A stretch of DNA of 64,000 nt. Source: Nitrospinae bacterium CG11_big_fil_rev_8_21_14_0_20_45_15. GTDB lineage: Bacteria > Nitrospinota > Nitrospinia > Nitrospinales > VA-1. Below the pieces are notes generated by a model. It had not been told where the DNA came from, did not search any database, and was given only the letters and a program-made list of their open reading frames with translations. The stretch spans positions 62,001 to 126,000 of the forward strand of contig PCWG01000015.1 in the NCBI GenBank assembly GCA_002787235.1, written 5' to 3'. This document shows, one piece after another, positions 9,661 through 40,186 of this stretch (position 1 is its first letter; the number at the start of each line of letters is the position of its first letter). The position numbers were made by a program, and so were the translations under genes.

Positions 9661-10872
9661 ATGAAAATGCAAGTCAAAAAAATTGTATTGGCTTACTCGG
9701 GCGGACTCGATACTTCCGTCATCATCAAATGGTTGAAAGAGCAATATGATTGCGAAATCATTGCTTTTGCGGCCGATCTTGGGCAGGGAGCAGAATTAGA
9801 TCCTGTAAGAGAAAAAGCTTTGGCCACTGGGGCCTCCAAGGTATATATCGAAGACTTGAGGGAAGAATTTGTCAGCGACTTTGTATTCCCCATGTTGCGA
9901 GCCGGTGCATTTTATGAAAATGATTATTTATTGGGAACCTCCATCGCCCGACCCCTTATAGCTAAAGAACAAATTCGCATTGCACGCAAAGAAGATGCTG
10001 ACGGTGTGTCTCACGGAGCCACGGGCAAAGGCAACGATCAAGTCCGGTTCGAGCTTGCCTATCAGACATTGAATCCCGAAATCAAGGTCATCGCTCCCTG
10101 GAGAATCTGGGACTTGAATTCCAGAACGGCATTGATCGATTATGCGAAAAAACATGGCATCCCGGTTCCCGTAAGTCAGGCCAAACCCTACAGCATGGAC
10201 CGAAACCTCTTTCACGTCAGTTATGAAGGCGGTATTCTGGAAGACCCTTGGAACAAGCCCGATGATGATATGTTCGTCATGAGTGTTTCTCCTCAACAGG
10301 CACCCGATAAAGTCACCACCTTGGAAATCGAATACGAACAAGGAAATCCTGTAGCCGTTAATGGCGAAAGAATGAGCCCGGCCGTTCTGTTAGCTACTTT
10401 GAACCAATACGGTGGCGACAATGGGATCGGCAGAATCGATATTGTAGAAAATCGTTTTGTCGGAATGAAATCGCGTGGCGTTTACGAAACCCCTGGCGGC
10501 ACCATTCTCCATGCGGCTCACTCGGCTGTTGAATCGATCACAGTAGACAGGGAATCTCTGTTTATAAGAGACTCACTGATCCCATCTTATGCAAAAATGA
10601 TCTATAATGGGTTCTGGTATTCACCCGAGCGGACACTCCTGCAAAAAATGATCGACCATACGCAACAGCATGTTAATGGAACCGCTCGTGTAGATCTTTA
10701 CAAGGGAAATTGCACAGTAACCGGGCGCAAAGCCGTGAAATCCCTGTACTGTCAAAATGTGGCAACGTTTGAAGAAGATGATCAATACAGACAAGACGAT
10801 GCCGAGGGCTTCATTCGCCTCAACGCGCTTCGTCTCAAACTTTATTCGAAAACCTTTCCTGACGTTTTTTAG
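9661..10872 (+). CDS. argG: argininosuccinate synthase
   Basis: ArgG (403 aa) joins citrulline and aspartate with ATP to form argininosuccinate in arginine biosynthesis. The N-terminal PP-loop YSGGLDTSV is intact, as are the [15 protein letters not shown]-like region (here [15 protein letters not shown]), the PYSMDRNL segment and the [10 protein letters not shown]-terminal element. Length is normal. Start is ATG 9661 or Met3 at 9667; no strong Shine-Dalgarno is seen. The gene has its own promoter (9565-9594) and is followed after 62 nt by an unrelated sigma-54 regulator. Confidence 0.97.
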
Positions 10873-10934
10873 AGCTCAATCAATAACAGCAATTGGCACC
10901 CAGGCAGTTACATAAATAACCGGGACAATTTCAA

Positions 10935-12329
10935 ATGAGTTCAATCCTTGTAGTCGATGATGAAAGAAGCCTGCGTGAATTTTTGACCATCATGCTTGAG
11001 GAACAAGGCTACGAGGTAGAGACAGCGGCTGATGGTGATTCGGCAATACGTTTGATTAAGGAAAAATCATTCGATCTGGCTTTAACAGACATTCGAATGC
11101 GAAAATCAAACGGACTTGATGTATTGACAGCAGTTAAACAATGGCAACCCAATACACCGGTGGTGATGATGACCGCATACGCCACTGCCGAAACCGCCGT
11201 CGAGGCAATGAAAAAAGGAGCTTACGATTACCTGTCCAAACCCTTTCAGGTCGAAGACCTGCAAATCATCATCAAAAATGCGATCGAAAAAAAGAAACTG
11301 GCGGATGAGAACGACTATTTAAAAACCGCACTGGGAGAAAGATATCATTTTTCCAATATGGTTGGCAAAAGCAGTGCGATGCAGAAAATTTTTGGTTTGA
11401 TCCAAAAAGTATCGGCCAGTGTCGCAACTGTTTTGATCACAGGTGAAAGTGGTACCGGCAAAGAATTGGCCGCAAAGGCAATTCATTTCAGCGGAGAACG
11501 AAGAAACTGTCCATTCATTTCCATCAACTGCGGAGCTCTGCCAGAATCTTTGCTGGAAGGAGAACTTTTCGGTTTTGAAAAAGGTGCCTTCACCGGAGCC
11601 GATTATTCGAAACCCGGGCTGATTGAATCCGCGAATCTGGGAACATTTTTTCTCGATGAAATTGGCGAGGCGTCCCCCTCCACTCAGGTCAAATTACTTC
11701 GTGTCTTGCAAGAAAAAGAAGTCATGCGGCTCGGCAGTTCGCAACCCATCAAAGTAGATGTCCGTTTTATGGCGGCAACGAATTGCGATTTATCACGAGC
11801 TGTTCAAAAAAAAGAATTCCGGGAAGATCTGTTCTATCGACTGAATGTGGTTCCTATTCATATCCCCCCATTGAGAGATAGAAAAGAGGATTTGCCCTTC
11901 CTGATAGAACATTTTCTGAATATTTTTACCAAGGAGCATAAATCTGATCGTCCCATTCAAGGCGTTTCGCATCCTGCATTGGCCCGCATGGAAGCCTATC
12001 ATTGGCCTGGAAATATTCGCGAACTGAGCAACGCGATCGAACGTGCTGTCGTTCTCGAAGCAGAAGATAAAATCCAACTGGAAAGTCTTCCCGACGAAAT
12101 CATTCATGGGCATTCTGCGGTCAATGAATGGATTCCGCCTCTGGATCAGGAAGGCCACATCCAATTGGAAGCAACGTTGGATCAGATCGAACGCCGACTA
12201 CTCCAAAGTGCTCTGGACAAAACTGGCGGAATGATCAACAAAGCCGCCGACATGCTGGACCTGAGTTTTCGCTCCATGCGCTATCGAATACAAAAACACA
12301 AACTCAAAGGGAAATACCGCAATCCATAG
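10935..12329 (+). CDS. sigma-54-dependent response regulator (NtrC type)
   Basis: A 464-aa activator with the full NtrC order. The receiver domain (1-120) has acidic Asp8/Asp9, phospho-acceptor Asp52 and Lys102. The AAA+ domain (140-370) has Walker A GESGTGKE at 170-177, the sigma-54-contacting GAFTGA loop at 217-222 and a FFLDEIG Walker B. A Fis-type helix-turn-helix closes the C-terminus (LDLSFRSMRYRIQKHKL). It should activate sigma-54 promoters when phosphorylated. No partner kinase is adjacent, so its signal and targets are unknown. It lies 62 nt after argG and 21 nt before the LpoA-like gene, so co-transcription with the latter is likely. Confidence 0.95.
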   Translation: MSSILVVDDERSLREFLTIMLEEQGYEVETAADGDSAIRLIKEKSFDLALTDIRMRKSNGLDVLTAVKQWQPNTPVVMMTAYATAETAVEAMKKGAYDYLSKPFQVEDLQIIIKNAIEKKKLADENDYLKTALGERYHFSNMVGKSSAMQKIFGLIQKVSASVATVLITGESGTGKELAAKAIHFSGERRNCPFISINCGALPESLLEGELFGFEKGAFTGADYSKPGLIESANLGTFFLDEIGEASPSTQVKLLRVLQEKEVMRLGSSQPIKVDVRFMAATNCDLSRAVQKKEFREDLFYRLNVVPIHIPPLRDRKEDLPFLIEHFLNIFTKEHKSDRPIQGVSHPALARMEAYHWPGNIRELSNAIERAVVLEAEDKIQLESLPDEIIHGHSAVNEWIPPLDQEGHIQLEATLDQIERRLLQSALDKTGGMINKAADMLDLSFRSMRYRIQKHKLKGKYRNP

Positions 12330-26906: not shown

Positions 26907-27100
26907 TTTGATTTTGGTTTCCTGTGAGCTAGCTATTAGAAGATTTTCCAGTGTCGCAACAAGGGAACGTTTGCAAATAATTGTGATTCATAACGCAGTT
27001 TTGTATATATTCCAAGGTAATTATAGTCAATTTGCTGTTCAAAATACATAGACCTGAGAAATATCATCGGGCCACCTTAAATCAGATTCAAAATTTTGCA

Positions 27101-28243
27101 ATGATAAATATTTGTCACATCAGCGGTACCACCTCACTAGGAGGCGGCCCCGAGCATCTGTTCCAATTATTGAAGCATTGTAATAAGAATCATTTTTCAT
27201 CCATCATTTGTACGCGCCAGGATGGGCCTTACTGGGAAAAATTCCAACAACTCGATATTCCCTTGCATCCCTTTACCTTGAGAGAATTATCGGTTTCTTC
27301 TTTTGTCAGCCTGTATCGATTCCTAAAAAAAGAACGTCCGCAACTCATCCACACTCACGGAAAAGGCCCCGGCCTCTATGGCAGAATCATTGGGAAAATA
27401 CTGGGCATCCCCACAATCCATACATTTCATGGTTTTCACTATGATGACATTCAACCTATCAAAAGGTGCCTGCACTTATTCATCGAAAACATACTGTGTC
27501 GCCTGACCGACCATCATATATTTGTCGGCGAAACTGAAAAAAAAAGAGCGCAGATAATATCTGGTTTGAATGAAATGAATTCCAGTGTCATTCCTAATGG
27601 AGTCGATTCTGTAAGTATCCAATCCTTACGAGTCGATAAAACGAAACTGCTGCGTGATACCGGATTGGAACATTTTAACAATAAAAGAATTCTCGGTGTC
27701 ATTTCAAGAATCTCTCCTGAAAAAGGGATTTCGCAACTGTTAGAACGTTTTGCTGAAACTCGTGAACAACAACCCGAATGGAAATTAATGATCGTCGGCG
27801 GCTTTCCTGAAGAGCATCAGCCCTACAAAGAGAAAATTCTAAAACTTGTCCGCGAGCTCAAACTAGAACCCGATATCGCACTCCCCGGATTTCGTGAAGA
27901 TGCCATGCAATTTCTGAAATGCTTTGATCTTTTTATATCCCCCTCATTGAGCGAAGGATTGCCTTTGGCACTATTGGAAGCCATTTCTGTGGGGACACTC
28001 GTCATCGCGTCCAACATCCCCGGCAATCGCGAAGTGTTGGGCGACCCGCCCTGCGGACTAATCTTCTCCCCAGAAACGCCACATTCCCTATCTACCGCAT
28101 TGAACGAATATGACAAATTAAGCAAAAATGATATTGACCGATTAAAAAATAGGGCTTTACTCAGGGTCAGAACAGAATTTTCAGCTCTTGAAATGGCCAA
28201 AAAAACCTACGCCCTTTACCAAAAGGTCATCAACGACAAATAG
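27101..28243 (+). CDS. GT4 family glycosyltransferase
   Basis: A 380-aa GT-B fold glycosyltransferase. The N-terminal domain starts MINICHISGTTSLGGGPEH, the family's glycine-rich acceptor-side loop; I therefore chose ATG 27101 rather than the in-frame ATG 27032. The C-terminal domain has ISRISPEKGI and the SPSLSEGLPLALLEA motif that binds the sugar nucleotide. It probably transfers a hexose-type sugar to a lipid or polysaccharide acceptor at the inner face of the membrane. No polysaccharide operon surrounds it. Confidence 0.93.
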   Translation: MINICHISGTTSLGGGPEHLFQLLKHCNKNHFSSIICTRQDGPYWEKFQQLDIPLHPFTLRELSVSSFVSLYRFLKKERPQLIHTHGKGPGLYGRIIGKILGIPTIHTFHGFHYDDIQPIKRCLHLFIENILCRLTDHHIFVGETEKKRAQIISGLNEMNSSVIPNGVDSVSIQSLRVDKTKLLRDTGLEHFNNKRILGVISRISPEKGISQLLERFAETREQQPEWKLMIVGGFPEEHQPYKEKILKLVRELKLEPDIALPGFREDAMQFLKCFDLFISPSLSEGLPLALLEAISVGTLVIASNIPGNREVLGDPPCGLIFSPETPHSLSTALNEYDKLSKNDIDRLKNRALLRVRTEFSALEMAKKTYALYQKVINDK

Positions 28244-30462: not shown

Positions 30463-31563
30463 ATGCTTAAAAAAGTCACGACTTCAATACAAGCTATTCT
30501 CTTAGTAATTTTTCTCACCACCGTCTATCCAACTCTCAGTCAGGCTCAATCCGCAAATATTTCTGATGGCATGTCCCCACTTCTCGCGGCAAAATACATT
30601 CACTCCGTCATAGAAGCCAATCGAACCATTTATTCAGAATTGATCGTAGAACGTCTTGGAGCCACCATTGGTTTACCCGCGACAGAAAACTGGGAAAAAG
30701 AAAAAGCCTTGCCCCTGCCCGCCCAATTTCTCCTCAAAACGGCAGAGGACTCCAACGCAAAAGGCATTGGCATGCATTACCGTCTGATTAGCTTGTGGCC
30801 CATCAATAAAAAAAATGGACCGCAATCATCCTTTGAAACCAAAGGTCTCGAACATAATTTACAAAATCCAACGGAACCTTTTTCACAACTGATATCTGTC
30901 AATGGAAAACCATTTTTTCGAGCAATATTTCCAGACAAAGCTGTTTCAAAATCATGCGTGCAATGTCACAACAAACACCTTCAGAGTCCCAAGCGGGACT
31001 TTAAACTGGGCGATATAATGGGGGGTATAATAATCGACCTGCCCGTGGAAAAAACAGCATCGGCAAACAACAGCCCGTTGATTGCACCGGAAGTCGTTGC
31101 CGATTATATTCACTCCATTATCGAATCCAATCGAACCGTTTATTCAGAAACCATTGTCGATCGATTGCATAAAATGAAAATCGCCTATGCATCGGAAAAC
31201 TGGTGGGAGGACAATACTTTATTGCTTCCAGCACAATTTTTGCTCGACGCGTCGGATTTGATCGCCCAAAAAAACGTTGCGCTGGATTTCAAGTTGATCA
31301 GTCTATGGCCAATCAATCCACAAAACGGATCGGCCAATGAATTTGAAAGGAATGGACTGCAATACGTCCTGCAACATCAAACGAGACCTTATTTCAAAAA
31401 AACAACCCTCTCCAGAAAAAAGTTTTTCGAAGCAATCTATCCTGACTACGCGGTAACACCAGCCTGCGTCGAATGCCACAACCAACATCCGAAAAGTCCT
31501 AAAAAGGATTTTAAACTAGGAGATGTGATGGGAGGAATTTCTCTGTTCTTTACAATCAAATAA
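30463..31563 (+). CDS. tandem Tll0287-like (DUF3365) dihaem c protein
   Basis: A 366-aa exported protein: a signal peptide (cleavage near QAQ-SA, residue 29) and two copies of the Tll0287-like/DUF3365 domain (about 38-193 and 208-362). The copies are closely similar, with repeated AxYIHS-ANR/SNR-T-YSE, FKLISLWPIN and KxDFKLGDxMGG. Each holds one CxxCH haem c motif (Cys165-His169 and Cys335-His339). These domains are redox or gas sensors in other bacteria, usually single and attached to kinases; here they form a stand-alone dihaem periplasmic protein. A perfect AGGAGG lies before ATG 30463, implying strong translation. Confidence 0.9.
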   Translation: MLKKVTTSIQAILLVIFLTTVYPTLSQAQSANISDGMSPLLAAKYIHSVIEANRTIYSELIVERLGATIGLPATENWEKEKALPLPAQFLLKTAEDSNAKGIGMHYRLISLWPINKKNGPQSSFETKGLEHNLQNPTEPFSQLISVNGKPFFRAIFPDKAVSKSCVQCHNKHLQSPKRDFKLGDIMGGIIIDLPVEKTASANNSPLIAPEVVADYIHSIIESNRTVYSETIVDRLHKMKIAYASENWWEDNTLLLPAQFLLDASDLIAQKNVALDFKLISLWPINPQNGSANEFERNGLQYVLQHQTRPYFKKTTLSRKKFFEAIYPDYAVTPACVECHNQHPKSPKKDFKLGDVMGGISLFFTIK

Positions 31564-34592: not shown

Positions 34593-35663
34593 TCAAGTTG
34601 TGACAACCCTGTTGAATTTATTCAAAAGACCGGGAAGCATTCCATTCAACCATAACATCAAAGTTCCCGTGTCTTTACCATCGCGTTTTTCATTCACTGG
34701 GATTCTCGGCAAACGTTCCATACTATTTTTGTGTTCGCAAAAAATATTTCCAATGCGTGTGGTGGTAACCGTTTTAAAGCCACAAAGTTTCGCCATCTCA
34801 AATTCCCTATCCCCAGCTTCTGCACGAGAGCCGAAGGGATATGAGAAATGCTCCACATTTTTCTCGATTTTATTTTCCAGCCTCTTTTTAGATTCTGTTA
34901 TCTCCCACTCCACTTCGGCGTCAGGCAATTTACTGAGCGCATAGTGGTTGACCGTATGCGCCCCGATCGTGACCAAAGGGTCTGCACTCAATTCTCTGAT
35001 TTGTTCCCAGCTCAAAGCAAGCTCGTCGGTCTTCAAATGCAAGTCATCGACATAATTTTTGAACACCGCTTTGATACGATTTAAAGGAACTTTGCCTTCT
35101 TCTTGTGCTATGAATTTATGAATGCTTTTATACGATGATTCTTTTTCCGAACGATTTGAGCAAGCATAATGAATTGTCTGTCCTTCCCATTCAAACGTCA
35201 GCTCCTGATGATTCAAAACCAAATCTTCAAGCAGATACCACCATAGGATGGCACTTCTTTCTGGAAAACTCGTGGTCACATAAATCGTGAATGGAACTTT
35301 GTATTTTTTTAAAACAGGATAGGCAAAATTAAAATTATCTGCGTATCCATCATCAAAAGTAAATGCCACGAATTTCCGCTTCGCTTTACCTTCGTTTAAA
35401 ATATCTGCAACACGATCCAGAGAAACCAGATCATAATCGTTCGCCAGCAAAAATTGAATGGACTGTTCCAGATATTCCGGCGTTACTTCCAGACCTGAAG
35501 CACCACCCATTCGGGCTCGATTCTCATCAGGACAAACACGATGGAACATTAGAATACTACCCATCCCTGCATACCAGGGCCGAGTGATCCTATGTATCCC
35601 GGATGCCGCCAACAGCGGGAATACGGTCTTGATGACACTGCGCTGTAATCCTTTGATGTTCAA
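34593..35663 (-). CDS. NodB-type polysaccharide deacetylase
   Basis: A 356-aa carbohydrate-esterase-4 protein. Motif 1 is TFDDGYADN (Asp104/Asp105, metal and catalytic base), and motif 2 is HTVNH, the zinc His pair. It would N- or O-deacetylate a sugar polymer or lipid-linked sugar in the cell envelope. No clear signal peptide is seen, though residues 8-25 are hydrophobic. The start is TTG 35663 with AGGTGA just before it; the next in-frame Met is 34 residues on. It follows the GNAT gene by 8 nt in the ACP-FkbH-GNAT operon. Confidence 0.88.
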   Translation of the reverse strand: MNIKGLQRSVIKTVFPLLAASGIHRITRPWYAGMGSILMFHRVCPDENRARMGGASGLEVTPEYLEQSIQFLLANDYDLVSLDRVADILNEGKAKRKFVAFTFDDGYADNFNFAYPVLKKYKVPFTIYVTTSFPERSAILWWYLLEDLVLNHQELTFEWEGQTIHYACSNRSEKESSYKSIHKFIAQEEGKVPLNRIKAVFKNYVDDLHLKTDELALSWEQIRELSADPLVTIGAHTVNHYALSKLPDAEVEWEITESKKRLENKIEKNVEHFSYPFGSRAEAGDREFEMAKLCGFKTVTTTRIGNIFCEHKNSMERLPRIPVNEKRDGKDTGTLMLWLNGMLPGLLNKFNRVVTT

Positions 35664-35671
35664 AAATTCAC

Positions 35672-36526
35672 CTATATATTTAAGATCGGTAACTCTGAAT
35701 ATAAAGAATCAATATCTTTTGCCGACAGAGTCGTCGATTTAAACACCCGTGGATGAGGAAGCGGCCATGACAGTGATACAATTGGGGCACGCCCTGCAAG
35801 CCAACGACGATCCATCAGCACCGAAACGGCTTTGAGACTCAAGCACAGGCTGGCGGAAATGCGACCGGCAAATTCTATAAACACACTGATATTGTTTGTA
35901 TGATGAACTTGAATGAATGGAAGATTTTTACGAATGATTCGAGTTGCCAGAATCAGACAATCCCCCTTTGAGGTATGGATGTTAATTTTTAAAAGACCGA
36001 ATCTTTCATGATCTCTCCAAAGCCTTTGCGACTCCCCTGTTAAAGTTCCGGATTGAGTGTCGTTATTGATTTCAATTTTACATTTTTTTATCAACGCTCC
36101 GATGCCGGGAACGGGGGGAATGATTTGTATATGTGTTTCAAGATCCGTGAATCCCAACTTGCATGCGACCTTATAAGTTTCCAGCGAACAAGTGAGGATG
36201 GTGATCGTGTAGTCCTTCAATTTCAAAACAGGTGTGAGAAGAAACAAACTCTGATTTCGGTATCGATCTTCAACAACCCAACTCGACACATTGCAAAACT
36301 TTTCTTCCTTACCGTTCATCGTGCGCTTGCTGAACAGGAGAGCAATGAATCCTCCTATATGCTCACCATCGACCAGTACGTATCCTATATAGCCCTCACC
36401 ACTGTTCCAGTTGTCCTGAAAAAGAGTCTGCCAGTTATCTCTGGATAAATTTCCATTATTGAATTTTTCAAACAGAGGCAAAGCCTTTGCAAAATCTTCT
36501 GGAATCGCTTTTCTAATGACGGCCAT
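35672..36526 (-). CDS. GNAT-like acyltransferase domain protein
   Basis: A 284-aa protein with a GNAT-type N-terminal half (about 1-150: IRKAIPEDFAKALPLFEKFN, IGYVLVDGEHIGGFIALLF, YRNQSLFLLTPVLK, ACKLGFT). The C-terminal half (150-280) contains LATRIIRKNLPFIQVHHT and no motif I know. Context, next to an ACP and an FkbH-like protein, suggests it moves an acyl group from the carrier to a sugar or amine. The acyl-CoA pyrophosphate loop is only weakly kept, so an ACP donor is plausible. Gaps are 28 nt from FkbH and 8 nt to the deacetylase. Confidence 0.7.
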   Translation of the reverse strand: MAVIRKAIPEDFAKALPLFEKFNNGNLSRDNWQTLFQDNWNSGEGYIGYVLVDGEHIGGFIALLFSKRTMNGKEEKFCNVSSWVVEDRYRNQSLFLLTPVLKLKDYTITILTCSLETYKVACKLGFTDLETHIQIIPPVPGIGALIKKCKIEINNDTQSGTLTGESQRLWRDHERFGLLKINIHTSKGDCLILATRIIRKNLPFIQVHHTNNISVFIEFAGRISASLCLSLKAVSVLMDRRWLAGRAPIVSLSWPLPHPRVFKSTTLSAKDIDSLYSELPILNI

Positions 36527-36554
36527 GCAAATCTCTTAAAATGAGCAGGGAGCG

Positions 36555-38237
36555 TTAGCCTGCTGTCAGGATCAAATCAACACACTCAGGCAACGGGTAC
36601 GGCTTACTGACATCGAAGATAAATTTTCCGCCCTCCTCCACCGTGGAAAAACCCGATCGTTGCAGGAACCGCAGACAGGGTTTATTTTTATCAGTCTGAA
36701 TATAATCAATATGTATTTTTTCCAGATGAATAGAACGCGCATATTCTATTGCAACGTAAAATAAAGACTCTTCAACGCAACGTCCCATCACACGACAACT
36801 GAGGAGGAAATCTACTAACCTCCCAACTTTTCCCTGATGTTCCATACTGATAATGCCAGTCAGACCGGAGTCTCCAAACTTATCCTGAACACGAACCAGC
36901 CATAAGTGATGGTTTTCATCGCGCTCCCAGTCTGCCAATTCGCTTTCAGTCAAACGCCGAGTGCGAAGATTCATCTGATTTGTTTTATTCAACAATTGCG
37001 TCGCACGTTGCCGATTGCCCTCACCAAGAGATTCCACCGTCACTTTGATGCCCAACGTCCGGAGCCATTCATCCAGAGTTCCCACGGATTGTCGCAGGTG
37101 CTTGCGCTGGTTTTCTTCCCGATACATTCGCAAGCGTTGAGCATCCTCTTCGCTGATTTGTGGACTATTGAAACAGGTCAGCTCTGACAGAGTTGTGGCG
37201 TACATCATTTTATCCTGTGGCCACTCCGGGACGAGAACCTCGGGCAATGCGTTTCTCACCCGCTCTCGTTCAATGGGATTGTCATCAATAAAAACAGCTG
37301 ACTGCAATCCCAGATTCAACTCTTCAAGAATTTCAATGATGTTCTGGGCCTTGTCCTCCCAGTTGATTCTCCAGGCAGAAAAATCTTCTTTTTTCAGAAG
37401 CATCTCAGGATGATTCTGAATGGCTTCCCAGCAGACCCCTTCCTCATTTTTACTGACGATTGCGAGAAGAATTCCCCGGCGCGTCAATGATTTAAGAACT
37501 CTCTGAAAATCTGCAAAAGCTTCTCCTGTCGGATCGTGTCCACCGAGTCGCAAATTTTTCCAACCCTCGTCCCCGACGATTCCCCCCCATAGCGTATCAT
37601 CGAGGTCGACAAGAATAATTTTTCGCGCGGACCCTGAGATTCCCGCCAGAGTTGATTTGACTTCAGCCACCGCAGATTTGAATACTTCATTGCCAAATGC
37701 GATTTTCCCCATGTACCAAAGTTTGGGGTTGCAAGCCTCTTTACCCGCCATCTGCATCCAGCGTCCTGCATTCAAAACATACACACCGGGAATTTTTTCC
37801 AGATTTTCCGCAAGCCGCAAATTCATACGACACAACAAATCCGTGAGTCCCGTTCCTTTCTTCATTTCCAGCATCCCATAGCCGCCAATGGATGCAGGCA
37901 AAGTCCACGAGGGAACCATGAGCACAGACACTTTTTGCGTGAGTTTAGACAGAGCCTCCGTATACGCGTCCACTTCAGCTAAAACGGTCTCGATCTCAAA
38001 GGGGTAGAAATCCAGTGCCCTTCGAAATGAATCTATCACCCCTTCCGGGCGTGTCCATACAAATGCCGAAGAATAGGATTCATTCCAGCATTCCGAGTTC
38101 TCATCCAGCAAAGTATGAATCACCTGTCCGTAAGGAGCCTGGACGGGAAGGATGCTCAAAGCATTCTTTAAATAACCCGCAAAACCACCCAGATTGAAAT
38201 CGGATAGCAGGAGGATTTTTTCAGACTCCCGACTCAT
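36555..38237 (-). CDS. FkbH-like HAD-IIIC protein
   Basis: A 560-aa FkbH-type protein: an N-terminal SGNH-like region (1-195), a HAD-IIIC domain starting VDLDDTLWGGIVGDEG (Asp211 nucleophile and Asp213), and a C-terminal GNAT-like domain (about 400-555; LLNKTNQMNLRTRRLT). FkbH proteins take 1,3-bisphosphoglycerate, dephosphorylate it and load glyceryl onto an acyl carrier protein. The ACP lies directly upstream with a 4-nt overlap, as that reaction requires. It may thus supply a C3 unit for a secondary metabolite or envelope decoration; product unknown. Confidence 0.92.
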   Translation of the reverse strand: MSRESEKILLLSDFNLGGFAGYLKNALSILPVQAPYGQVIHTLLDENSECWNESYSSAFVWTRPEGVIDSFRRALDFYPFEIETVLAEVDAYTEALSKLTQKVSVLMVPSWTLPASIGGYGMLEMKKGTGLTDLLCRMNLRLAENLEKIPGVYVLNAGRWMQMAGKEACNPKLWYMGKIAFGNEVFKSAVAEVKSTLAGISGSARKIILVDLDDTLWGGIVGDEGWKNLRLGGHDPTGEAFADFQRVLKSLTRRGILLAIVSKNEEGVCWEAIQNHPEMLLKKEDFSAWRINWEDKAQNIIEILEELNLGLQSAVFIDDNPIERERVRNALPEVLVPEWPQDKMMYATTLSELTCFNSPQISEEDAQRLRMYREENQRKHLRQSVGTLDEWLRTLGIKVTVESLGEGNRQRATQLLNKTNQMNLRTRRLTESELADWERDENHHLWLVRVQDKFGDSGLTGIISMEHQGKVGRLVDFLLSCRVMGRCVEESLFYVAIEYARSIHLEKIHIDYIQTDKNKPCLRFLQRSGFSTVEEGGKFIFDVSKPYPLPECVDLILTAG

Positions 38238-38536
38238 GCGCCATCACCGTTTACGCGAGCAACAATAAAGTCGGCCAGACGCCCGACACTCTTCAGAGGT
38301 TCCTGAGGATTTTCAAGTTCCTCGATCAAATTGATCGTCAAACCAAAATCAGTACTCATCCGGCCCTCCAGAGCGACCATAAAGTTTATCAAACCCAATG
38401 AATCCAGCTCACCCGCATCACCGAAAAGCAAAGTAAGTTCAGAGTTTTTAAGACGTTCCTCTTCCGCAAGCATCTCATTGACTTCTTCAATCGCTCCAAA
38501 GATGGACTTCAATGCACGTTCCCTTAGTTCCGACAT
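38234..38536 (-). CDS. acyl carrier protein
   Basis: A 100-aa carrier protein. LDSLGLINFMVAL carries the Ser46 that takes the phosphopantetheine arm, inside the usual DSL motif at the start of helix 2. It is stand-alone and not part of the fatty-acid fab cluster. Its stop overlaps the FkbH-like start as ATGA. It is the first gene of the minus-strand unit ACP-FkbH-GNAT-deacetylase, and the likely glyceryl carrier. Confidence 0.92.
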   Translation of the reverse strand: MSELRERALKSIFGAIEEVNEMLAEEERLKNSELTLLFGDAGELDSLGLINFMVALEGRMSTDFGLTINLIEELENPQEPLKSVGRLADFIVARVNGDGA

Positions 38537-38623
38537 TTTATAAATTATTCTCCGTTTAAAATGAAACCTAAAAGGAAACTATCAAATTATTGAAGATTCT
38601 CATAAAATAATTTCCAAGACCCC

Positions 38624-38661
38624 GCTGTCCGGTTAGAATAAACGCATATCTGGGCTGTCCG
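38624..38661. repeat. two GCTGTCCG direct repeats 30 bp apart
   Basis: GCTGTCCG at 38624-38631 and again at 38654-38661, in the 234-nt divergent region between the ACP gene (-) and the hotdog-SDR gene (+). The 30-bp spacing is close to three helical turns, as for paired operator half-sites. No regulator is known; weak. Confidence 0.25.
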
Positions 38662-38770
38662 TCACACCCCGTTTCTTAAGTTTTAAAATGATGTTCGAAC
38701 TCAGGGCTTTAACTCTTAAAGTTTCCAAAAAAAAACACTCTGACTTTCGTCGACTCAACAGGAAAGAAAA

Positions 38771-40186
38771 TTGACAGAACATAAATTCAACCTTGCAGAC
38801 CAACAACGATTTGCCCGGTTATCCGGTGATTACAATCCGGCTCATATCGATCCCGTCAAAGCCCGCAGGCTCATTTTTGGACGCCCGGTTGTTCACGGTA
38901 TCCACGCTTTGTTATGGAGCCTGGAAGATACGCTAAAGGAAAAAACAGGTCCACTGCAACTCTTGAAGTTGAAAGTCTCCTTCAAACGAGCGATCGGCAT
39001 CGAAGAAAACGTTTCCATTCTAAAAAAGAAAGAAACACCGGGTCAGATCGAATGGCAATTGGCAACCGATGTGGCACCCTCCGCTCATGTCATTGTCTCA
39101 TACGCAGTCATGCATAAAACAGATCAAAACAACTTCCTTATCGAAGGTCTGCCTCCGAAAACTGATTGCAAAGATCTTGACGCCAAACAAATCGAACGAG
39201 CCAAAGGCCACTTGGAGTTGTATTTCGCTAAAAAAGAAATGCAGAAGCAATTTCCTAATTTGACACAATTATTACCGCCTTGCCAATTGGCACAATTACT
39301 GTCTTTAACACGACTCGTAGGCATGAAGTGTCCCGGCCTGCATTCTATTTTTTCAGATTTGAATCTACAATTCTCGGACAGGTTTCAAGCTTCTCCGCAC
39401 TTGCAATTCAACGTGACCCGCTACGAGCCACGGATCTCACTCGCGGACATAACGGTTTCTTCTTCGGGTATGGAGGGCAACCTGCAGGCTTTCTTACGCC
39501 CTGCCCTGCAAGTTCAAGAATCTTATGCCCAATTGAGCCAAAAAATTCAAGCTTTGGAATTTTCCCAACAGAATGCGCTGGTCGTTGGTGGTTCCAGAGG
39601 TTTGGGAGAAGTCACAGCAAAACTGCTCGCCGCCGGAGGAGCTAAAACAACTATCACTTACAATCAAGGGGCCGAGGAAGCGCAAGCCATTGTGGATGAA
39701 GTCACTCTTGCAGGCGGAAAAATCCAATCTGTCCATTTTGACATTCTGAGTCCCAAAACCATTGGAGAAAATATAACCCATCTCTACTATTTTCCCACAC
39801 CCTATATCCACGCAGGAGCCCATCGTTCCTTTTCTTACCGATTGTTCTCAGAATTTTGTGATTATTATGTGGGCGGATTCCTCAATACGGTACGCAAGGT
39901 ACAGGAAAACAGCCGGAGCCCATTGAAATGTTTTTATCCATCATCCATCGCTGTTGACGAGTTACCGCCCAATATGGGGGAGTACTCTGCCGCTAAAATA
40001 GCAGGTGAAACGCTATGCACCTGGTTGATGAAAACGGACCCGCAGTTGAGTATCTTTCAGACCCGGCTTCCAAGAACTCAAACCGACCAGACGGCGAGCC
40101 TGTTGCCCGCAGATAAAGATCATCCGACCTCACTCATGCTGAAACACCTGCGCCGCTTTCAGGACGAAAAATTCAAGACTCCCTAA
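38771..40186 (+). CDS. double-hotdog (MaoC) fused to SDR reductase
   Basis: A 471-aa fusion. Residues 1-120 are a MaoC/R-hydratase hotdog with LSGDYNPAHID (catalytic Asp and His) and FGRPVVHG. Residues 125-260 look like a second, degenerate hotdog. Residues 270-465 are a short-chain dehydrogenase with VVGGSRGLGE (NADP loop) and YSAAKIAGE (YxxxK). The usual NNAG is replaced by an IHAGAH-type segment. It should hydrate/dehydrate and reduce an acyl-thioester, perhaps on the nearby ACP. The start is TTG 38771, backed by AGGAAAG just upstream and by the hotdog fold starting right there. Confidence 0.85.
   Translation: MTEHKFNLADQQRFARLSGDYNPAHIDPVKARRLIFGRPVVHGIHALLWSLEDTLKEKTGPLQLLKLKVSFKRAIGIEENVSILKKKETPGQIEWQLATDVAPSAHVIVSYAVMHKTDQNNFLIEGLPPKTDCKDLDAKQIERAKGHLELYFAKKEMQKQFPNLTQLLPPCQLAQLLSLTRLVGMKCPGLHSIFSDLNLQFSDRFQASPHLQFNVTRYEPRISLADITVSSSGMEGNLQAFLRPALQVQESYAQLSQKIQALEFSQQNALVVGGSRGLGEVTAKLLAAGGAKTTITYNQGAEEAQAIVDEVTLAGGKIQSVHFDILSPKTIGENITHLYYFPTPYIHAGAHRSFSYRLFSEFCDYYVGGFLNTVRKVQENSRSPLKCFYPSSIAVDELPPNMGEYSAAKIAGETLCTWLMKTDPQLSIFQTRLPRTQTDQTASLLPADKDHPTSLMLKHLRRFQDEKFKTP

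What the first reader, a model, noticed from the sequence alone, without database searches (positions are those of the whole stretch)
34593..40186. ACP-FkbH-GNAT-deacetylase operon facing a double-hotdog-SDR gene
Carrier protein, glyceryl-ACP-forming FkbH-like protein (4-nt overlap), GNAT and polysaccharide deacetylase genes lie in one tight unit. A MaoC-type hydratase/SDR fusion is divergent from them. Together they could load glycerate on ACP, transform it and pass the acyl group to a deacetylated amino sugar. I know no described pathway with this set.
Basis: partly seen in the sequence, partly recalled or inferred. Interest (0 to 1): 0.6.

Follow-up and report, generated by a model that had tools for sequence, protein, structure and literature searches.

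The report
Acyl-swapping cassette for surface sugars
In a marine nitrite-oxidiser relative, five neighbouring genes look like a small assembly line that puts a three-carbon acid from glycolysis on a carrier protein, reshapes it and attaches it to a sugar that has first lost its acetyl group; related bacteria keep the last two genes but swap the acid-making genes, which suggests interchangeable cassettes for decorating cell-surface sugars.

Summary
In detail: ACP and FkbH overlap by 4 nt, GNAT and deacetylase follow at 28- and 8-nt gaps, and a MaoC-SDR gene is divergent. All five have intact motifs or folds and evolve under purifying selection. The genome is a Nitrospinaceae MAG. The full block recurs only in one congener, and four genes in a third genome. 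Two sub-modules are much more widely conserved. (1) GNAT+deacetylase: in 77 Nitrospinota genomes, all 9 with the deacetylase also have the GNAT (10 genomes); the two are directly adjacent in 7 loci. The acyl-donor genes beside them swap: FkbH/ACP; MaoC/B12-radical-SAM/FkbH/ACP; ACP/SDR/AMP-ligase/MaoC; SDR/FabH. (2) The rare MaoC-SDR fusion sits beside FkbH+ACP in 7 of 7 occurrences in two phyla, with an N-acyltransferase within about 5 kb. The best reading is a deacetylate-and-reacylate cassette for surface glycans using an ACP-bound C3 hydroxyacyl group, possibly glyceryl converted to lactoyl. Precedents for the parts: FkbH glyceryl-ACP, Flavobacterium ACP-fed N-acylation of O-antigen sugar, Caulobacter HfsH/HfsK. 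The combination appears undescribed in the open literature searched: a new variant of a known kind. All chemistry is inferred and the sugar acceptor is unknown.

The parts
38234..38536 (-). small acyl carrier protein (100 aa), carrier Ser46 in DSL motif; proposed scaffold for the FkbH product
   Evidence: weak PF00550; Ser invariant; 80%, 52% and 38% identity to carriers in G025, G032, G043
36555..38237 (-). FkbH-like protein (560 aa): HAD-IIIC domain DLDDT/DDNP plus C-terminal domain with SCR motif (Cys481); proposed to load glyceryl from 1,3-bisphosphoglycerate onto the ACP
   Evidence: (TIGR01686 6.6e-89); 4-nt overlap with the ACP gene
35672..36526 (-). tandem-GNAT N-acyltransferase family without a Pfam/NCBIfam model (284 aa); proposed to transfer the ACP-bound acyl group to an amine
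   Evidence: no family; 19-member family; Eis-like tandem GNAT fold
34593..35663 (-). cytoplasmic polysaccharide deacetylase (PF01522) with intact catalytic motifs and no predicted signal or TM segment; proposed to free the acceptor amine
38771..40186 (+). MaoC-type hotdog hydratase/dehydratase fused to an SDR (471 aa, TTG start), DYNPAH and GGSRGLG...S...YSAAK intact; proposed to act on the ACP-bound acyl group
   Evidence: linked to FkbH+ACP in 7/7 loci
38537..38770 (.). divergent intergenic region between the two transcription units (no promoter call above shuffle background)
27032..28243 (+). GT4 glycosyltransferase; possible partner: homologues (46%) lie next to the cassette in G032 (L020) and G030 (L022), but the gene also sits at this site in congener G026, which lacks the FkbH cassette

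Best explanation
The five genes form a surface-glycan N-acylation cassette. FkbH takes 1,3-bisphosphoglycerate and loads glyceryl on the dedicated ACP. The MaoC-SDR fusion then remodels the ACP-bound group, most plausibly by 2,3-dehydration to pyruvoyl-ACP and reduction of the 2-keto group to lactoyl-ACP. The cytoplasmic deacetylase removes the N-acetyl group of an amino sugar on a cytoplasmic, probably lipid-linked, glycan precursor, and the GNAT transfers the acyl group from the ACP to the freed amine. Shown: gene content, motifs, folds, linkage and purifying selection. Inferred from established FkbH biochemistry: glyceryl loading. Inferred from gene linkage only: action of MaoC-SDR on this acyl group, and transfer to the deacetylated amine. 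Speculative: lactoyl as product, and the identity of the sugar.
For: GNAT and deacetylase co-occur in 9 of 9 deacetylase-bearing genomes out of 77, hypergeometric 6e-11 without correction for shared ancestry, and are adjacent, GNAT first, in 7 loci. Donor genes swap around the pair: FkbH/ACP (window, L019, L020), MaoC/B12-rSAM/FkbH/ACP (L022, L023), ACP/SDR/AMP-ligase with MaoC (L064), SDR/FabH (L063, L066); most of these sets would yield short acyl thioesters, several of them hydroxylated. MaoC-SDR is rare (2/77 and 5/401 genomes) yet adjoins FkbH+ACP in all 7 cases, divergently in 6, with an AAC(3)-like or GNAT N-acyltransferase nearby in all 7. Homologous cassettes lie among RmlA/RmlB/epimerase/GT2/O-antigen ligase genes or in exosortase-A EPS loci. 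FkbH-to-ACP glyceryl loading is established (PMC7489565, PMC4979870). No signal or TM segment in the deacetylase fits a cytoplasmic acceptor.
Against: No biochemistry. The whole five-gene set occurs in only two genomes of one genus, so MaoC-SDR could act on another acyl chain. In the window genome the cassette is not inside a polysaccharide locus, and no acceptor-sugar genes adjoin it. G032 C345 has the same four genes without MaoC-SDR (9-kb contig), so glyceryl itself may be the transferred group there. In G042:C47 and G038 the GNAT is not next to the deacetylase.
Confidence: 0.6

Rival explanations
1. Same cassette, but the group transferred is unmodified glyceryl (N-glyceryl amino sugar), and MaoC-SDR has a separate role or only trims side products.
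For: G032:C345 (L020) has ACP, FkbH, GNAT and deacetylase without MaoC-SDR in the 9-kb contig. Glyceryl-type decorations of bacterial glycans are known (di-O-methylglyceric acid on Campylobacter flagellin, PMC3958885), and an FkbH-domain gene, cj1302, lies in that glycosylation locus (PMC7099621).
Against: MaoC-SDR adjoins FkbH+ACP in 7/7 loci in two phyla, which is hard to explain without a shared substrate. Both its active sites are conserved.
Confidence: 0.25
2. GNAT and deacetylase act independently: the GNAT acylates a sugar nucleotide or small amine and the deacetylase trims a polymer, so the neighbourhood is a general surface-polysaccharide island rather than a deacetylate-reacylate pathway.
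For: Most betaproteobacterial members of the GNAT family sit next to a 2-oxoacid dehydrogenase E1 gene, at least one in an exosortase-A EPS locus, and mostly without this deacetylase family. In L021 the GNAT lies beside FkbH/ACP without a nearby deacetylase.
Against: In Nitrospinaceae the deacetylase never occurs without the GNAT in the same genome (9/9) and is usually the next gene, whatever donor genes flank them.
Confidence: 0.15
3. A small secondary-metabolite or lipid pathway: FkbH/ACP supplies glyceryl for a non-glycan amide.
For: Characterised FkbH proteins in the papers found belong to polyketide/NRPS pathways (PMC7489565, PMC4979870, PMC10099666).
Against: No PKS/NRPS/KS genes in the block; the deacetylase belongs to a carbohydrate-active family, and homologous blocks sit with sugar-nucleotide and glycosyltransferase genes.
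Confidence: 0.08

Closest known systems
FkbH/ACP glyceryl-ACP modules (tetronate glycerate-utilisation operon; methoxymalonyl-ACP pathway)
   Same: FkbH-like HAD protein next to a stand-alone ACP; glyceryl loaded from 1,3-bisphosphoglycerate, further modified on the ACP (PMC7489565, PMC4979870)
   Different: here there is no PKS, no FabH-like ring-closing enzyme and no glyceryl-oxidising dehydrogenase pair; instead MaoC-SDR, GNAT and a polysaccharide deacetylase
Flavobacterium psychrophilum wfp R-group genes (WfpC-G)
   Same: O-polysaccharide-specific ACP with acyl-building enzymes predicted to feed an N-acyltransferase on an amino sugar; donor genes vary between strains and change serotype (PMC6519341)
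   Different: acyltransferase is PglD-like, the acceptor is a UDP-amino sugar made by dehydratase/aminotransferase, donor chain is FAS-like; no deacetylase and no FkbH described
Caulobacter holdfast HfsH (deacetylase) / HfsK (FemX-like tandem GNAT)
   Same: cytosolic polysaccharide deacetylase plus tandem-GNAT acyltransferase proposed to acylate the amines exposed by HfsH (PMC5362036)
   Different: acyl donor there unknown; HfsK is FemX-like and c-di-GMP-controlled; a sequence-family link was not tested here
AAC(3)-fold 'Antibiotic_NAT' acyltransferases (e.g. FrbF)
   Same: in Comamonadaceae the homologous FkbH-ACP-MaoC-SDR module is followed by such an N-acyltransferase
   Different: a different Pfam family from the GNAT; plays the GNAT role in another lineage (inference)
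Corramycin ComK (FkbH domain) / ComJ (radical-SAM methyltransferase)
   Same: FkbH-loaded glycerate proposed to be C-methylated by a radical-SAM enzyme (PMC10099666), like the MaoC/B12-rSAM/FkbH/ACP variant in L022/L023
   Different: modular assembly-line context

Membership tests
FkbH glyceryl-ACP synthases | FkbH/HAD-IIIC domain with DxDxT nucleophile and conserved SCR cysteine region | tested here: met
   TIGR01686 6.6e-89; D211xD213xT215, D318-D319 and S480-C481-R482 invariant in 9 FkbH proteins
FkbH glyceryl-ACP synthases | cognate stand-alone ACP encoded alongside | tested here: met
   4-nt overlap ACP/FkbH; ACP Ser46 invariant
FkbH glyceryl-ACP synthases | loads glyceryl from 1,3-bisphosphoglycerate | not testable with these tools
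   needs intact-protein MS
NodB/CE4-type polysaccharide deacetylases | PF01522 domain with TFDDG and HxxxH metal-binding motifs | tested here: met
   TFDDG102, HTVNH236, SYPFG274; TFDDG, H236/H240 and YPFG invariant in 9 homologues
GNAT N-acyltransferases | GNAT fold | tested here: met
   AlphaFold pLDDT 82; best PDB hits are Eis-like tandem GNATs, E 2e-10, TM 0.58
GNAT N-acyltransferases | match to a curated GNAT family model | tested here: not met
   no Pfam/NCBIfam match at E<=0.1 for the window protein, none at E<=0.001 for homologues
MaoC hydratase/dehydratase fused to SDR | MaoC GDxNPxH catalytic motif and SDR GGxxGxG / S / YxxxK | tested here: met
   DYNPAH at 20, GGSRGLG at 273, S391, Y405-K409 conserved across phyla
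MaoC hydratase/dehydratase fused to SDR | two hotdog folds (double hotdog) | tested here: inconclusive
   length and predicted secondary structure fit, but pLDDT 63
wfp-type ACP-fed O-antigen N-acylation | PglD-like hexapeptide acyltransferase and sugar aminotransferase in the same unit | tested here: not met
   none of the five block genes is of either kind; the acyltransferase is a tandem GNAT
HfsH/HfsK system | FemX-like acyltransferase in a holdfast (hfs) locus | tested here: inconclusive
   GNAT resembles Eis-like tandem GNATs rather than FemX among the best structural hits shown; no sequence comparison with HfsK was run

The most novel reading that the evidence does not exclude
A glycolysis-fed 'deacetylate-reacylate' cassette: glyceryl-ACP made by FkbH is dehydrated and reduced by a MaoC-SDR fusion to lactoyl-ACP, and a previously unnamed tandem-GNAT family transfers it to sugars deacetylated by the adjacent enzyme; exchange of the donor genes around a fixed deacetylase-GNAT pair diversifies surface glycans of Nitrospinota.
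Probability: 0.3. Interest if true: 0.68.

Novelty: new variant of a known kind. Interest (0 to 1): 0.52.

Why it matters
If right, it gives bacteria a direct route from a glycolytic intermediate to an amide decoration on surface sugars, independent of CoA. It gives a first testable role to an unnamed tandem-GNAT family and to a MaoC-SDR fusion, both found across phyla. It also shows a plug-and-play pattern (fixed deacetylase-GNAT pair, exchangeable acyl donors) by which poorly cultivated marine Nitrospinota, and EPS-forming Betaproteobacteria through the related FkbH module, could vary their surfaces against phages and grazers. The idea that Caulobacter HfsK re-acylates HfsH-exposed amines is unproven; this cassette is a similar system in which the candidate donor is encoded next door.

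Tried and rejected
Viral contigs with FkbH: no hit. Exosortase in the window genome: none, so the exosortase link of a betaproteobacterial homologue does not extend to this organism. Empty-site test in congener G026: synteny is conserved up to ThiO and then breaks, but AhcY lies about 270 kb away, so a clean insertion could not be shown. Base composition shows no island signature. Promoter/terminator scan at background. MaoC-SDR fold search was uninformative beyond the SDR half because the model is weak. GT4 at 27032 as an obligate cassette member: rejected, since it is present in G026 without the FkbH cassette. Literature searches for FkbH with polysaccharide pathways returned only three open papers, of which only the Campylobacter cj1302 paper was read and bears on glycans. 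Lactoyl formation from FkbH-loaded glycerate (recalled for bryostatin-type loading modules) could not be verified in the open library.
Full report
What is there. The window lies in contig C26 of a 3.37-Mb Nitrospinaceae genome assembly (named relatives). On the minus strand run ACP (38234-38536), FkbH (36555-38237), a 284-aa protein (35672-36526) and a polysaccharide deacetylase (34593-35663); ACP and FkbH overlap by 4 nt, and the other gaps are 28 and 8 nt. A MaoC-SDR fusion (38771-40186, TTG start) is divergent. FkbH is clear (TIGR01686 E=6.6e-89), as are the deacetylase (PF01522 E=3e-23) and MaoC plus SDR. The ACP scores below Pfam's cut-off but keeps the carrier serine in all seven related carriers. 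The 284-aa protein matches no Pfam or NCBIfam model; its AlphaFold model (pLDDT 82) has a tandem-GNAT fold, nearest to Eis-like acetyltransferases. Catalytic motifs are intact in deacetylase, FkbH, ACP and MaoC-SDR. Compared with congener G025 all five genes show dN/dS of 0.06-0.18, and the TTG starts are conserved.

Conservation of the block. Only two of 77 phylum genomes carry MaoC-SDR: this one and G025 (same five genes, same order and divergence, 72-80% identity). A third genome (G032:C345) has ACP-FkbH-GNAT-deacetylase at 46-56% identity, beside an RmlC-like protein, GT2, GT4 and an O-antigen-ligase-type protein. In congener G026 the neighbourhood is collinear from the GT4 gene to ThiO and then diverges; the FkbH cassette is absent there.

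Module 1, receiver. The GNAT family occurs in 10 of 77 genomes and this deacetylase family in 9, all 9 within the 10; the tenth genome holds only a contig-end GNAT fragment. The hypergeometric probability is 6e-11, not corrected for shared ancestry. GNAT lies directly upstream of the deacetylase on the same strand in seven loci (window, L019, L020, L063, L064, L066, and L067 where GNAT is broken). In L022 and L023 both are in one cluster about 5 kb apart; in G042:C47 and G038 they are not adjacent.

Donor swapping. Around the pair the acyl-donor genes change: ACP+FkbH with MaoC-SDR (window, L019) or without (L020); MaoC + B12-binding radical SAM + FkbH + ACP (L022, L023); ACP + SDR + AMP-ligase with MaoC downstream (L064), whose SDR and ligase are 59-65% identical to a Chloroflexi locus also carrying this GNAT (L038); SDR + FabH-type ketoacyl synthase (L063 in congener G026, L066), beside epimerase, RmlB and GT2 or RmlA genes. 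From established family chemistry these make short acyl thioesters, several of them hydroxylated. The pattern indicates one acceptor reaction fed by exchangeable donors.

Module 2, donor. The MaoC-SDR fusion is rare outside too: 5 of 401 genomes drawn from the family of a Comamonadaceae isolate. In all five, and in the two Nitrospinaceae, it adjoins FkbH and ACP, divergently in six of seven; an AAC(3)-like N-acyltransferase follows the ACP in four, and the GNAT lies nearby in the others (PDB relatives of the AAC(3)-like protein). One of these loci (L045) carries hydrolase 1 and 2 markers of exosortase-A EPS loci. The FkbH tree places the window clade far from the Comamonadaceae clade and from the L022 clade, so the partnership is either ancient or was formed more than once.

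Mechanism. FkbH proteins load glyceryl from 1,3-bisphosphoglycerate on an ACP, after which the unit is modified on the carrier (PMC7489565, PMC4979870). A dehydratase and a ketoreductase locked to this module suggest that glyceryl-ACP is dehydrated to pyruvoyl-ACP and reduced to lactoyl-ACP; this step is inference from gene linkage and chemistry. The deacetylase has no signal or membrane segment by a simple hydropathy scan, so it should act in the cytoplasm, where ACP chemistry occurs, on a lipid-linked or nucleotide-bound glycan; the GNAT would then acylate the freed amine. The presence of a different N-acyltransferase family next to the same donor module in another phylum supports an amine acceptor.

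Relation to the known. The nearest analogues are the Flavobacterium psychrophilum R-group genes, where an O-polysaccharide-specific ACP is predicted to feed an N-acyltransferase and donor genes vary among serotypes (PMC6519341), and Caulobacter HfsH/HfsK, where a GNAT was proposed to acylate amines exposed by a deacetylase (PMC5362036). Campylobacter flagellin carries di-O-methylglyceric acid and its glycosylation locus holds an FkbH-domain gene, cj1302 (PMC3958885, PMC7099621). A radical-SAM methylation of FkbH-loaded glycerate is proposed for corramycin (PMC10099666), matching the L022 variant. The combination FkbH/ACP + MaoC-SDR + tandem GNAT + deacetylase was not found in the open papers searched. 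I rate it a new variant of a known kind.

Limits. No experiment supports any step, the acceptor sugar is unknown, the co-occurrence test ignores phylogeny, several genomes are fragmented, ORFs in related loci were called with a simple script, and the MaoC-SDR model is weak.

Noticed in passing
G000:C24 (L028 8655-10936) and homologues L029-L032: A second FkbH + ACP pair followed by an unannotated ~397-aa protein, within a surface-polysaccharide-like cluster conserved in five genomes of the family; its FkbH clade is far from the window's.
   Followed up: partly
L067 (G042:C20) 10587-11051: The GNAT next to an intact deacetylase appears broken (frame with stops, split matches), a possible pseudogene, while the same genome holds another intact GNAT with FkbH/ACP on C47.
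   Followed up: no
L063 (G026:C1, about 227-247 kb): The SDR-FabH-GNAT-deacetylase cassette of congener G026 lies beside a nonulosonic-acid-type gene set (NeuB, UDP-GlcNAc 2-epimerase, DegT aminotransferase, PglD-like).
   Followed up: partly
L038 (Chloroflexi MAG) and L064 (G043, Nitrospinaceae): SDR + AMP-ligase + GNAT shared at 59-65% (SDR, ligase) between phyla, suggesting horizontal transfer of the donor module.
   Followed up: no
L040-L047: Homologues of this GNAT in Betaproteobacteria sit next to a fused 2-oxoacid dehydrogenase E1 gene, mostly with an E2, and in L045 and L042 with exosortase-A-associated hydrolases, hinting at an acyl donor made by that complex.
   Followed up: partly
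window 30463-31563: Protein with tandem Tll0287-like domains, each ending in a CXXCH haem motif.
   Followed up: no
L072 8644-9765 and L074 1067-2368: Extra deacetylase copies in G030 and G032 lie near other large unannotated proteins (373 and 433 aa, the latter with a weak GNAT match), perhaps alternative acyltransferases.
   Followed up: no
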